From Chitinophagaceae bacterium (GTDB taxonomy: Bacteria; Bacteroidota; Bacteroidia; Chitinophagales; Chitinophagaceae), in assembly GCA_020437365.1 (NCBI GenBank), contig JAGQWM010000022.1, forward strand, positions 1 through 38,065: a stretch of DNA of 38,065 nucleotides, given 5' to 3'. This document shows positions 5,255 through 8,627 of this stretch, piece by piece. Made by a program: the position numbers and the translations under genes. The notes under the pieces are model-generated. The model was not told the DNA's origin and made no database searches. It was given only the letters and a program-made list of their open reading frames with translations. How positions within the stretch are numbered: position 1 is the stretch's first letter; each line of letters starts with the position of its first letter.

Positions 5255-6073
5255 TTACTCGTCAAAAGGGCTCTTTATATTTTGTAGCATAGGCGAGGTA
5301 ACTTGTGTATAGAGCATTGTTGTTTTAATGGAATTATGTCCTAATAATTTTTGAATGATTCTTATGTCAGTTCCTTTTTCCAATAAATGAGTAGCATAGC
5401 TGTGGCGTAATGAATGTGCTGAAAATTCTTTTTTTATATTGGCTCGTTTTGCTGCTGCTTTCAAAAATTTATTAAAGCTGGAAGTACTGTATTTACCTCT
5501 CTTTTGTCCTTCAAATAAATAAATTTTAGGCGAATATTCCTTATAATAAGCCCTTAACATGAGTAACAATTTTTCAGAAAGAGGAACTATCCGATCTTTC
5601 CTGCCTTTGGCTTGTTTAACATGAATAATCATTCTTTTCGAGTCAATATCTAAAATTTTCATATTTATCATTTCGCCCACTCTAAGACCTGCACTATAGA
5701 CCAAAGCTATCATCGATTTATGTTTACTATTTTTAGCAGCATAGATGAGAGAATTTACATCCTGAAGGGAAAGAATAACGGGCAATGTTTTGCTATTTCT
5801 TTTTGGAACTAATAATTCAAGATGAATATTTTTGTTATAAATTTCTTTATAGTACAATTTTAATCCCAGTGCAATTTGCTTTTGGTAAGCAATAGAAATA
5901 TTCTTCGAATGAATTAATTCGTAAAAATATTGATGTAGTTGATCTTCCGAAACATCATGTAAAGGTTTTTGAAAATAGCTCCGGGCTAGTTTTACTACAG
6001 ATTCATATGCCTTGATTGTATTCAAGCTATACCGTTTGACTTCCAATATTTTCACAAAATCGGTAATACTCAT
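5255..6073 (-). CDS. Tyrosine recombinase (XerC/D-like integrase) next to a cassette array
   Basis: 272 aa site-specific recombinase. An N-terminal SAM-like core-binding domain (about 3-85) precedes the catalytic domain with all expected residues: R131 (GLRVGE), K156, H220 and R223 (HSLRH), H246 (LLGHNS) and nucleophile Y255 (TTMLYTQV). The tail ends IKSPFDE, resembling the SPLD tail of integron integrases. Between the hairpin lysine and the HxxR box there is no extra 20-residue IntI-specific patch, so this is not a classical IntI. The gene is rich in AAA, ATT and AAT codons, unlike the exporter beside it. It reads toward the rhodanese gene and is divergent from the cassette-like units starting at about 6161, the layout of an integron platform. 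A plain XerC/D role is unlikely given this setting. Confidence 0.9.
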   Translation of the reverse strand: MSITDFVKILEVKRYSLNTIKAYESVVKLARSYFQKPLHDVSEDQLHQYFYELIHSKNISIAYQKQIALGLKLYYKEIYNKNIHLELLVPKRNSKTLPVILSLQDVNSLIYAAKNSKHKSMIALVYSAGLRVGEMINMKILDIDSKRMIIHVKQAKGRKDRIVPLSEKLLLMLRAYYKEYSPKIYLFEGQKRGKYSTSSFNKFLKAAAKRANIKKEFSAHSLRHSYATHLLEKGTDIRIIQKLLGHNSIKTTMLYTQVTSPMLQNIKSPFDE

Positions 6074-6149
6074 ATTGCTACGAATTTAAATATTAATCCA
6101 AAAATGTATTACATTTATACCAAATAGTAATAATAAAAGGTAAACTCCT

Positions 6150-6157
6150 TATATTTT
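6150..6157 (+). promoter_or_regulatory. Candidate cassette promoter -7 box
   Basis: TATATTTT matches TAnnTTTG at 7 of 8 positions and lies between the recombinase and the first cassette gene, just upstream of the attI-like core at 6161. It could act like the Pc promoter of integrons and drive the array. No convincing -33 element is visible. Confidence 0.3.
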
Positions 6158-6160
6158 ATA

Positions 6161-6171
6161 GTTAGCTGCAA
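6161..6171 (+). other. attI-like recombination boundary (candidate)
   Basis: GTTAGCTGCAA matches 8 of 11 positions of the right end of the attC-like site at 7218-7228 (GTTGGTAGCAA). It lies 35 bp before the first cassette gene's ATG; the equivalent distance in the second unit is 31 bp. In an integron this is where the G/TT crossover would occur. The function is inferred from position and similarity only. Confidence 0.4.
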
Positions 6172-6195
6172 CCTGAATAAGCAAATACCTATAAA

Positions 6196-7083
6196 ATGGA
6201 TAGAAAAAGGTTCTTAAAATCATTGGCATTATTACCATTAATAGGTTCTACTATGAATTTAAAAGATTTAAATAAAATGACTTCTTCAATGAGTAATACA
6301 GATAAAATGCCTGTATTATTCCTTGGACACGGAAGCCCAATGAATGCTATTGAAGAAAACGAATTTGTTCAAGGCTTTAGAAAAATTGGGAAAGAAATAG
6401 AAAAGCCAAACGCCATACTATGTATTTCTGCGCATTGGGAAACCAGAGGAACATATGTAACAGCAATGCAAAACCCACCAACTATTCACGATTTTGGTGG
6501 TTTTCCGCAAGCATTATTTGATATACAATATCCAGCACCAGGAAGTCCAGAATTAGCAAACCAAACCAAACAGCTAATCACGAAAACAAAGGTAGAATTA
6601 GATGACAAATGGGGACTTGACCACGGAGCGTGGAGTGTTATAAAGCACCTTTATCCAAATGCAGACATTCCCGTAATTCAAATGAGCATAGACTATACAC
6701 AACCTGCCCATTATCATTACGAATTGGCGAAACAAATTAGTGCTCTTCGACAAAAAGGTGTACTTATTATAGGAAGTGGAAATATGGTACATAACCTACG
6801 AATGGTTGCTTGGAACAAACTCAACGAAGAATTTGCTTTTGATTGGGCAACAGAAGCCAACGAAAAAATGAAAAATCATATTTTAAGTGGCGATTTTCAA
6901 CCCTTGATTGATTTCAAATCACAAGGAAGAGCTTTTGATTTGGCTATTCCTACACCCGAACACTATTTGCCACTACTCTACACCTTGGCTTTAAGAGAAG
7001 AAAAGGAAGAAATAACCTTATTTAACGATAAACCCGTTGGAGGTTCTTTGACAATGACATCCTTAAAGATTGAACCAAATTAA
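6196..7083 (+). CDS. ygiD: 4,5-DOPA-type extradiol ring-cleavage dioxygenase (YgiD/DODA family)
   Basis: 295 aa. Class III extradiol dioxygenase-like fold of the LigB/DODA type, which opens catechol rings of DOPA-like substrates using a single metal. The four His expected as zinc ligands in YgiD are present: H45 (LGHGSP), H80 (SAHWE), H199 (GNMVHN) and H256 (PTPEHYLP), plus LDHGAWS at about 141. It is roughly 23 residues longer at the N-terminus than E. coli YgiD. The extra part (basic RKR, then a hydrophobic LALLPLIG run) resembles a weak signal or anchor, so it may be periplasmic. It is the only gene in the first cassette-like unit, and its stop lies 10 bp before the attC-like palindrome. 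The physiological substrate is unknown. Confidence 0.9.
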   Translation: MDRKRFLKSLALLPLIGSTMNLKDLNKMTSSMSNTDKMPVLFLGHGSPMNAIEENEFVQGFRKIGKEIEKPNAILCISAHWETRGTYVTAMQNPPTIHDFGGFPQALFDIQYPAPGSPELANQTKQLITKTKVELDDKWGLDHGAWSVIKHLYPNADIPVIQMSIDYTQPAHYHYELAKQISALRQKGVLIIGSGNMVHNLRMVAWNKLNEEFAFDWATEANEKMKNHILSGDFQPLIDFKSQGRAFDLAIPTPEHYLPLLYTLALREEKEEITLFNDKPVGGSLTMTSLKIEPN

Positions 7084-7093
7084 AAAGGCAGCA

Positions 7094-7226
7094 GCTAACA
7101 ACGTATATAAAAAATAGCGGTTTAAGTGCTAAAATGAAAATGAATTTTATAAATTTAATGCCATTTATAATCTGAAAAGTTAGTGCGTAAAATCCGCTAC
7201 TTTTCATATACAAGACCGTTGGTAGC
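7094..7226 (+). repeat. attC-like imperfect palindrome (133 bp)
   Basis: The ends GCTAACAACG (7094-7103) and CGTTGGTAGC (7217-7226) are inverted copies with one mismatch. Further in, TAGCGG (7115-7120) pairs with CCGCTA (7194-7199), TATAT near 7104 pairs with ATATA near 7206, and AAGTGCTAA (7124-7132) faces TTAGTGCG (7180-7187). The right arm carries about six extra unpaired bases (7211-7216), giving the asymmetry known from integron attC sites. The centre (about 7133-7179) is an unpaired A+T-rich loop. It starts 10 bp after the dioxygenase stop and ends 22 bp before the next gene. No T-tract follows, so it is not a terminator. Confidence 0.6.
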
Positions 7227-7248
7227 AATGTTTACAGACCTCACGTTT

Positions 7249-7824
7249 ATGAAAATAATTTCAGGACTTTTATTGCTTTTAATCATCGGTTGTTCGGACA
7301 ACAAATCCAAAGTAGACAACAAACATAAATCGGACAACCAGACTTTAGACTTTGGTTCATTCACTATTATGACACCAATCAGTTGGACAAAGATTAAGGC
7401 ACAAGGAGCAGACAGTTACGTTGGGCGAATTGCAATTGATAATATCGACACATTAGATTTTGACTTAGGTTGGTACTCAAACACCTTGACAGAACCAGAA
7501 CCACAAATCATTGAACGTTCAATGTTAAAGAATATGGATGTGCTGGACACGACACAATTCATTATCGTTGACAGTCGCAAAGGCATTGACCCCGACAAAT
7601 ACAAAAAGAATAATGTTTCGTGGGACACAATTGATGGACGCAAAGCAAAAATTGTTTTTCCAAGACAATCAGGCGTTGGCACGACAGGAATTTATATTGA
7701 CAGTTTATGGCAAGCGGGTTCTGACATAGACAGATTTAATTTGTATGGAGACAATTTAAAGCCAGCAAACAAAAAGCTATTTCTTGAAGCATTAAGGACG
7801 TTGAAATTTCACAAAACGAAATAA
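7249..7824 (+). CDS. Hypothetical lipoprotein (second cassette gene)
   Basis: The chosen ATG gives 191 aa that begin with a short basic end, a Leu/Ile-rich core and the lipobox LIIGC, so it is a predicted lipoprotein. A GTG at 7183 in the same frame would add 22 residues but would lie inside the palindrome and spoil the signal peptide. The mature part is soluble, polar and Asp-rich, with no motif I recognise; the pattern of strands and the PISWTKIKAQGAD opening recall small lipoproteins of unknown function in Bacteroidota. It is the only gene of the second cassette-like unit. Its stop lies 4 bp before the half-site at 7829. The A+T-rich codons match the recombinase rather than the flanking chromosome. 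Confidence 0.75.
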   Translation: MKIISGLLLLLIIGCSDNKSKVDNKHKSDNQTLDFGSFTIMTPISWTKIKAQGADSYVGRIAIDNIDTLDFDLGWYSNTLTEPEPQIIERSMLKNMDVLDTTQFIIVDSRKGIDPDKYKKNNVSWDTIDGRKAKIVFPRQSGVGTTGIYIDSLWQAGSDIDRFNLYGDNLKPANKKLFLEALRTLKFHKTK

Positions 7825-7828
7825 CACT

Positions 7829-7837
7829 GCTACCAAC
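7829..7837 (+). repeat. Orphan left half of a second attC-like site
   Basis: GCTACCAAC is the exact reverse complement of the GTTGGTAGC end at 7218-7226, and sits 4 bp after the lipoprotein stop, just where the next attC-like site should begin. No matching right half is seen downstream. The following bases (GGGTCAATGTTGCACAACC at 7840-7858) may be the outer end of the IS1182-type element that interrupted it. Confidence 0.4.
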
Positions 7838-7936
7838 ATGGGTCAATGTTGCACAACCCCTCTTAAAATTGATAATAAAACGGAAAACGGCTTCTTTAGA
7901 AACCTTTCCTCAATCCGGTTTTTTACAACCGGGTTT

Positions 7937-8438
7937 TTAGTAGTAAGAAAATGATATGCTGATTTGGGCCCTAATCAGCTTTGATGACCACCGCTGATAA
8001 ATAAAATTTTTGGCAAGAGATTCCTTTCCTGGTTTTGACAAGGCTATAGCTATCGTTTTTACTTTTTTGTTGATATGCTTCATGTATTTTTTCAGGTTAT
8101 AGCATACCGCTGCCATCAACAATGCCTGGTTAGCACATTTTAACCCCCTCGATGTCATTCTTCTTAACCCTAAGAAATTAATCAGCGTACCCCACACCGG
8201 TTCTACCGTGGCACTGCGTTTTCGTTTCATCACTTTACCCTTTATGCTTTGTTGCCTCGCTATGGCTTGCTCTAATTCTTTTTTATAAATACTGTGTTGT
8301 ACTTTCTTAGTCTTCGCCTTTTCACTAATGCAACTCGTTCTTAACGGACATTTATCACAATCGCTTTTTAATGAAAAATACTTCCTTACCGGGTGCCCTC
8401 TTCCATCATCCACTACCCGGCCACTCCCTTTCAGTCGT
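7937..8438 (-). pseudogene. IS1182-type transposase, C-terminal remnant
   Basis: About 165 residues of the C-terminal end of a DDE transposase of the IS1182 family survive. Seen in order: a Cys cluster (DCDKCPLRTSC), a basic stretch with VEPVWGTLINFLGLRRMTSRGL (the E and R/K of the catalytic region), and the ALLMAAVCYNLKKYM helix typical of this family. The N-terminal two thirds, including the first Asp residues, are absent. The reading frame runs on upstream to 8512, but there it only reads the IS3 fragment backwards, so that part is spurious. The right-hand break with the IS3 fragment lies at about 8425-8441. The element cannot move by itself. Confidence 0.8.
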
Positions 8439-8627
8439 TTCAAAGCAGAGTTGTTACAGGATGGCATTTTTGAAAACATTGACGATGCCCGAACAGAAAT
8501 ATTTGAATACATAGAAATGTATTACAACACCCATCGAATACATTCTTCACTCAACTATCAAAGTCCTGATACCTATGAAAAAAAGTATTATTATTGTTTA
8601 ACCCAAGAGAATTTTGTGTCCGTGTAA
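8439..8627 (+). pseudogene. IS3-family transposase (OrfB) C-terminal fragment
   Basis: About 62 codons matching the end of the IS3/IS150-type rve integrase: KAELLQDGIF, then FEYIEMYYNTHRIHSSL and the YQSPDTYE tail that follows the catalytic Glu. The Asp residues and the upstream OrfA are lost. The piece abuts the IS1182 remnant head to head; upstream of about 8439 the frame reads non-coding antisense DNA. The stop at 8625-8627 is probably the natural end of OrfB. IS ends could not be identified with confidence. Confidence 0.75.

What the first reader, a model, noticed from the sequence alone, without database searches (positions are those of the whole stretch)
5255..7840. Integron-like cassette locus run by a non-IntI tyrosine recombinase
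Seen: a complete tyrosine recombinase gene (R131, K156, H220, R223, H246, Y255) reads away from two single-gene units in one direction. Between recombinase and array lies an 11-bp core (6161-6171) similar to the end of the palindrome at 7094-7226. Each cassette gene starts 31-35 bp after a core and stops 4-10 bp before the next site. Known: integrons have exactly this layout. The unusual part is that the enzyme lacks the IntI-specific insertion between the hairpin Lys and the HxxR box and looks like a XerC/D-type protein. Inference: a Bacteroidota cassette-capture system parallel to integrons.
Basis: partly seen in the sequence, partly recalled or inferred. Interest (0 to 1): 0.85.

Follow-up and report, generated by a model that had tools for sequence, protein, structure and literature searches.

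The report
Integron with a non-IntI recombinase
This locus in a Bacteroidota bacterium has the layout of an integron (recombinase gene, attachment core, hairpin site, one-gene cassettes with matching ends), yet its recombinase lies outside the known integron-integrase family; the same combination recurs in many genomes of the class, so an overlooked second kind of gene-capturing integron likely operates there.

Summary
Window 5255-7838 holds an intact 272-aa tyrosine recombinase, an attI-like core (6161-6169), a dioxygenase cassette, one complete attC-like palindrome (7091-7226) and a lipoprotein cassette whose own site is truncated. Both cassettes show the integron signature: their first bases match the reverse complement of their own site (9/9 and 10/10).
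A covariance model built without the window finds the palindrome at 91 bits, and 53 sites in 20 related recombinase loci (340 kb) against 2 in 398 kb of control DNA. In the window's class, 151 of 198 sampled genomes carry such sites and 93 of 198 a related recombinase (90 of these 93 have sites), but only 1 of 198 a classical IntI. The enzyme lacks the roughly 42-residue IntI insertion and groups with neither IntI nor XerC/XerD. Sixty-two of 62 sites in the 20 loci read away from the recombinase. Seven same-genus relatives lack the island, and the lipoprotein cassette recurs, cut at its borders, in another genus.
Catalysis was not tested; the window's array is short and partly broken. Verdict: a new variant of the integron, widespread in Bacteroidota, not found described in the papers searched.

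The parts
5255..6073 (-). XerA-like tyrosine recombinase gene (272 aa), divergent from the array
   Evidence: Phage_integrase 146 bits; NCBIfam XerA 210.9 bits, cut-off 220; IntI model 178.8, cut-off 265; catalytic residues invariant; AF2 model pLDDT 86.9
6147..6160 (+). TATA-rich stretch directly before the core, the attI-like element (putative)
   Evidence: Similar TATA-rich stretches precede the core in many of the related loci printed; compared by eye, no model built
6161..6169 (+). attI-like crossover core GTTAGCTGC, start of cassette 1
   Evidence: Reverse complement of 7091-7099, 9/9; 87 bp from the recombinase start; 20 of 25 loci with a core have it at 56-125 bp
6162..7218 (+). Cassette 1 (borders at G/TT inferred)
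   Evidence: Matching ends
6196..7083 (+). 4,5-DOPA-extradiol-dioxygenase-like gene, cassette 1 cargo
   Evidence: NF007914 326.7 bits, cut-off 233; LigB
7091..7226 (+). attC-like site of cassette 1, complete
   Evidence: R2 91 bits, E 3.9e-23, 7092-7225; stem pairs vary together over 51 sites
7219..7838 (+). Cassette 2, its own site truncated after the left core
   Evidence: blastn 83% to G181 over 7218-7836
7249..7824 (+). Lipoprotein gene, cassette 2 cargo (ATG at 7228 also possible)
   Evidence: No Pfam or NCBIfam family; 361 homologues among 474 candidates, several named from Chitinophagaceae genera
7828..7838 (+). Left core of cassette 2's lost attC-like site (TGCTACCAACA)
   Evidence: Reverse complement of 7218-7227, 10/10; no model hit here
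7937..8627 (.). Insertion-sequence remnants that follow the array: IS1182-type transposase piece (7937-8512 -) and rve piece (8328-8627 +)

Best explanation
The locus at 5255-7838 carries a XerA-like tyrosine recombinase gene, an attI-like core, one complete attC-like site and two one-gene cassettes whose ends match, and it likely works as an integron, the recombinase being predicted to insert and remove circular cassettes by exchange at G/TT in these cores. Shown by sequence: the matching cassette ends, the one-way orientation, the association with this recombinase family, the missing IntI insertion, the absence of the island from seven same-genus relatives, and a cassette shared with another genus between matching borders. 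Inferred: that this recombinase catalyses the exchange, that the attC-like sites act as folded single strands, that cassettes are read from a promoter near the recombinase, and that the island came in by horizontal transfer. Since the enzyme lacks the roughly 42 residues that IntI has between hairpin lysine and HxxR box, it would have to recognise the hairpin in another way, perhaps through the conserved stem itself.
For: Cassette ends: within 1 kb, 19 of 21 neighbouring site pairs are identical over the 6 bases after GTT; random pairs from different loci 9 of 1900. Longest ORF in sense in 29 of 29 matched cassettes (2 of the 29 come from the IntI locus L085). Held-out model: 53 sites near, 2 in controls. 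62 of 62 sites point away from the recombinase. Class sample: sites 151/198, recombinase 93/198, IntI 1/198; sites in 90 of 93 recombinase-positive and 61 of 105 other genomes, Fisher p 1.2e-11, not corrected for relatedness. Array layout needs one change on the recombinase tree among 30 labelled rows. Cassette 2 in another genus. Island absent in seven same-genus relatives.
Against: No assay. 61 of 105 class genomes without a close recombinase still carry sites. Of the 15 genomes behind L118-L137 that one search examined, 5 (G058, G063, G291, G318, G349) also have a classical IntI, on another contig or over 1.7 Mb away, so in those IntI could act in trans. Three of 93 recombinase-positive class genomes showed no site; 3 of the 20 loci had none. 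The window's second site is truncated and insertion-sequence debris follows, so this copy may be partly dead. The bottom strand is predicted more stable in 39 of 51 sites but not in the window's own. The window's clade has SH-aLRT 90 only.
Confidence: 0.85

Rival explanations
1. It is an ordinary integron whose IntI has merely diverged and lost its insertion.
For: IntI nests among XerA-like enzymes in the tree; Smyshlyaev et al. (PMC8138268, passages seen) say the insertion is not fully conserved in their integron-like subgroup.
Against: The 10 IntI rows form one clade with support 100 that excludes the window enzyme; hairpin-Lys to HxxR spacing is 106-111 in 16 measured IntI and 64-69 in 51 measured XerA-like enzymes, with no intermediate; TIGR02249 178.8 against cut-off 265.
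Confidence: 0.08
2. The recombinase does chromosome-dimer or plasmid resolution and the cassettes were moved by another enzyme, the neighbourhood being incidental.
For: NCBIfam's best model is XerA; 61 of 105 class genomes without a close match have sites; 5 of 15 genomes of the L118-L137 set have an IntI elsewhere.
Against: The genome has separate genes that score best as XerD and XerC (L003, L004, below the cut-offs of those two models), split off in the tree with support 99; sites are concentrated beside this family and oriented away from it in 62 of 62 cases; IntI was not found in 197 of 198 class genomes.
Confidence: 0.06
3. The palindromes are a dispersed repeat (REP- or MITE-like) or terminators lying between ordinary genes.
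For: Palindromic, mostly between genes, several copies per genome; some lie far from any recombinase found (2 control hits).
Against: Cassette-end identity between neighbours (19 of 21 within 1 kb), one orientation per array, and a shared cassette with borders inside the cores are not expected of such repeats.
Confidence: 0.01

Closest known systems
Classical integrons (IntI, attI, attC, gene cassettes)
   Same: Recombinase beside an attI-like core; tandem one-gene cassettes in one direction; asymmetric palindromic sites with AAC/GTT cores; each cassette's first bases match its own site. Calditrichia sites in a locus with a true IntI (L085, IntI model 479 bits) look alike in outline, by eye.
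   Different: Recombinase lacks the IntI insertion and lies outside the IntI clade; core is GTTRNNNNN rather than GTTRRRY (the latter recalled); inner stem shared across loci, 60 of 84 sites 123-131 bp long; in 12 of 17 loci the array follows the recombinase's 3' end, in the window's clade its 5' end.
XerA-like recombinases (NCBIfam NF040815, 'site-specific tyrosine recombinase/integron integrase')
   Different: XerA is listed among the chromosome-dimer resolution enzymes (PMC8138268, passages seen); here the gene sits at a cassette array.
XerC/XerD with dif or pdif modules (recalled)
   Same: Tyrosine recombinases of similar size moving DNA between short sites.
   Different: Sites here are long hairpins with matching cassette ends; the genome's XerC- and XerD-like genes are separate and outside this clade.
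CALIN (attC clusters without integrase; PMC9024848, passages seen)
   Same: Some Bacteroidota site clusters lie away from a recombinase; the G181 array has none within the 14 kb looked at.
   Different: The window's array has its recombinase beside it.

Membership tests
Integron | Integrase with the IntI-specific additional domain | tested here: not met
   Lys-to-HxxR spacing 64 against 106-111 in 16 measured IntI; TIGR02249 178.8 bits, cut-off 265; outside the IntI clade
Integron | attI site next to the recombinase gene | tested here: met
   Core 6161-6169, 87 bp from the gene; of 27 loci tried 25 have a core, 20 of them at 56-125 bp. By sequence only
Integron | attC sites: imperfect palindromes with conserved structure, variable sequence | tested here: met
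   14 of 14 stem pairs with two-sided changes, though the finder itself required paired arms and AACA/CGTTR-like cores; the window's site was also found by a model built without it
Integron | Canonical core GTTRRRY (recalled) | tested here: not met
   Window cores GTTAGCT and GTTGGTA; columns after GTTR vary over 51 sites
Integron | Cassettes of about one gene in one orientation, ends matching | tested here: met
   for the window; 29 of 29 matched cassettes sense, 19 of 21 close neighbours identical
Integron | Recombination of a folded single (bottom) attC strand | not testable with these tools
   Bottom strand predicted more stable in 39 of 51 sites, not in the window's; no assay
Integron | Cassette promoter Pc at the recombinase end | not tested
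   No promoter evidence gathered
XerC/XerD-dif | Enzyme groups with XerC/XerD | tested here: not met
   The own XerC- and XerD-like genes split off with support 99; NCBIfam XerD 178.9, cut-off 329.6
XerC/XerD-dif | Acts on a dif site | not tested
   dif was not sought
XerA (NF040815) | Score over the family cut-off | tested here: inconclusive
   Window 210.9, just under 220; relatives L118 225.4 and L126 229.1 over it

The most novel reading that the evidence does not exclude
Nearly half of the genomes of this Bacteroidota class carry integrons run by an insertion-free, XerA-like recombinase, and three quarters carry its cassette sites: a second integron lineage that standard searches miss. 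Hairpin-cassette capture would then predate, or not need, the IntI insertion, IntI being one branch of a larger cassette-capturing family that also spreads anti-phage genes.
Probability: 0.68. Interest if true: 0.93.

Novelty: new variant of a known kind. Interest (0 to 1): 0.86.

Why it matters
Integrons are recognised by IntI, whose extra domain is described as necessary for integron recombination (PMC9668308, passages) and as what goes with its folded-strand activity (PMC9024848, passages). IntegronFinder 2.0 adds one complete integron in Bacteroidetes proper, in Salinibacter, besides those of Chlorobi and Ignavibacteriae (same passages). If a relative without that domain does the same work in a class where 93 of 198 sampled genomes have the enzyme and 151 the sites, the definition, the origin of the domain and the census of cassette genes all change, and whether the insertion is needed becomes directly testable. 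Cargo in related arrays includes an AriAB-like (PARIS) fusion and an FRG-domain protein, so the arrays may be unread stores of phage defence.
Full report
What is there. The window (contig C76 of a 2.63-Mb draft genome) carries, at 5255-6073 on the minus strand, an intact 272-aa tyrosine recombinase. Reading away from it lie a dioxygenase gene (6196-7083; NF007914, 326.7 bits, cut-off 233) and a lipoprotein gene (7249-7824, or from 7228; no Pfam or NCBIfam family), separated by a 133-bp palindrome (7094-7226), the best palindrome of the first 20 kb.

The cassette signature. In integrons a cassette in an array begins with bases that belong to its own attC site, so its start matches the reverse complement of its own site's left core (established knowledge, recalled). 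This holds twice here: GTTAGCTGC (6161-6169) against 7091-7099, 9 of 9; GTTGGTAGCA (7218-7227) against 7828-7837, 10 of 10. In related arrays found with a sequence finder, 19 of 21 neighbouring site pairs under 1 kb apart agree at all 6 bases after GTT, 5 of 8 at 1-1.5 kb, 5 of 13 at 1.5-2.5 kb, 0 of 8 beyond; larger gaps probably hide missed sites. Random pairs from different loci agree in 9 of 1900. That set holds all hits of the finder at score 14, also some outside Bacteroidota and the IntI locus L085. In the 29 cassettes with matching ends the longest ORF is in sense in 29 of 29; it starts within 70 bp of the core in 22, and in two cassettes it has only 40 and 50 residues.

The site family. 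Fifty-one sites (the window's plus 50 of the 58 listed, eight left out to thin the set) align over 149 columns. RNAalifold gives 14 stem pairs, each with two-sided changes; 664 of 714 cells are Watson-Crick, 21 A.C, 12 G.T and 17 other; one further opposed pair is A.C in 47 of 51 sites, a mismatch on the top strand that becomes T.G on the bottom strand. The finder asked for paired arms and for AACA and CGTTR-like cores, so pairing and core conservation are in part built in. The bottom strand is predicted more stable in 39 of 51 sites, the top in 11, but in the window's site the top is (-16.3 against -13.5 kcal/mol); rows are related, so the p-value (2e-4) is optimistic. Between stem and GTT the right arm has a few extra bases, giving the site a direction. 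Of 84 sites, 60 are 123-131 bp long from AACA to CGTTR, and 6 are 189-192 bp.

Held-out test. Model R2 was built from 28 sites of other loci, without the window and without L118-L137. Over the window, the 20 recombinase loci L118-L137 (340 kb) and 20 control stretches on the same contigs of eight of those genomes (398 kb), it gave 56 hits at E 0.01: the window's site (91 bits), 53 in the recombinase loci and 2 in controls. With model R1 (window included) there are 65 hits: 62 counted, one antisense shadow in L133 and two control hits dropped. All 62 point away from the recombinase, in 17 of 20 loci. In L118, L119, L123, L133 and L137 they lie on the divergent side, as in the window; in the other 12 they follow the gene. 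On the tree this layout needs one change among 30 rows labelled by hand, and the seven divergent rows (L006 from palindromes and two weak hits) form one branch with SH-aLRT about 90.

How common. In a phylum sample R1 finds sites in 196 of 395 genomes, a close recombinase (E 1e-70) is in 23, and 22 of these 23 have sites (G259 does not). IntI over cut-off is in 105 of 395; of the 107 genomes matched, only G051 lies in the window's class. Some of the phylum's sites may therefore belong to IntI. Of the 15 genomes of the L118-L137 set that this sample held, 5 (G058, G063, G291, G318, G349) have an IntI, on another contig or more than 1.7 Mb from the XerA-like gene. The class sample avoids that confusion: of 198 genomes, sites (R2) in 151, recombinase at E 1e-50 in 93, IntI in 1. 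Sites occur in 90 of 93 recombinase-positive genomes (misses G097, G406, G612) and 61 of 105 others; Fisher p 1.2e-11, not corrected for relatedness. Only 17 candidates per genome were scored, so site counts are lower bounds. The own genome has 3 sites (two were not located) and no IntI.

attI. In 27 loci with a first site, a 9-base match to its left core was sought between recombinase and site: 25 have one, 20 of them at 56-125 bp from the recombinase gene, at its 5' or 3' end according to layout (87 bp in the window); L123 and L133 gave none. A TATA-rich stretch precedes many of these cores; it was seen by eye only.

Mobility. In 7 of 8 stretches fetched from same-genus relatives the rhodanese and TonB-receptor genes lie 62 to 984 bp apart, against 4340 bp here; the eighth ends at the contig edge. 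The recombinase (E 1e-60) is in 1 of 34 other same-genus genomes, at 47% identity. The lipoprotein cassette recurs in G181, another genus: nucleotide match 83% over window 7218-7836, from the first core into the last one, with the same core, in a different array with shorter sites and no recombinase of this family found in the 14 kb looked at. A weaker homologue in G651 starts just after a model hit. The dioxygenase is a common gene in the family (23 of 42 genomes), with no site in the 9 loci tested.

State of this copy. The left core of the second site is present, but no complete site follows it; transposase remnants begin at 7937. The recombinase, attI-like core and first site are intact, so capture at attI could still occur (inference).

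Known or not. Ten paper searches over open PubMed Central papers listed no title or abstract describing this system; passages were read in six papers, none in full. Most subscription papers and preprints are not in that library, so an existing report cannot be excluded. IntegronFinder 2.0 reports earlier Bacteroidetes finds as integrase-only, adds one complete integron in Salinibacter, and says IntI's extra domain sets it apart. The archaeal-integron paper also treats that domain as a defining trait. Smyshlyaev et al. call the insertion essential but not fully conserved in their subgroup.

Verdict. It works like an integron as far as sequence can say, but by the usual definition it is not one, because the IntI domain was tested and is missing. 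I file it as a new variant of a known kind.

Noticed in passing
L189 9906-10749 and 12001-12819: A Flagellimonas marinaquae mobilizable plasmid carries a 66% identical recombinase (annotated xerA) and two sites around a dihydrofolate-reductase-family gene; an erm(F) gene lies between sites and recombinase. A plasmid-borne version of this layout.
   Followed up: partly
L002 1501-2319 (own genome, contig C159): A second XerA-like recombinase of the same genome, in a longer open frame, sits next to recA; similar rows group with it in the tree. Role unknown; no R2 site within the stretch at E 0.01.
   Followed up: partly
L255 (G181) around 4222, 5866 and 7208, minus strand: An array with another, shorter kind of site: spacers ending in TCTATTTTTGA before GTT, with matching cassette ends, and no recombinase of this family found in the 14 kb looked at.
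   Followed up: partly
L127 12496-14388; L028 11733-12560; L129 18320-18940; L020 11945-12988: Cargo of related arrays includes an AriAB-like (PARIS) fusion, an FRG-domain PDC-S15 protein, a SUKH protein and a NERD protein; 6 of the 10 cargo proteins tried (of 29 matched cassettes) have no Pfam family.
   Followed up: partly
L007 17961-18087, L013 13603-13729, L128 16751-16877: Sites alike over most of their length in Flavobacterium, Algoriphagus and G063, by eye, pointing to movement of cassettes between families.
   Followed up: no
phylum sample: Classical IntI is over cut-off in 105 of 395 genomes of the phylum, all but one outside the window's class, some with a stop codon inside.
   Followed up: no
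own genome G000: Two further sites of this family lie elsewhere in the own genome; their places were not listed.
   Followed up: no
window 7937-8627: Overlapping remnants of two insertion sequences (IS1182-type transposase C-terminus and an rve piece) follow the array.
   Followed up: no
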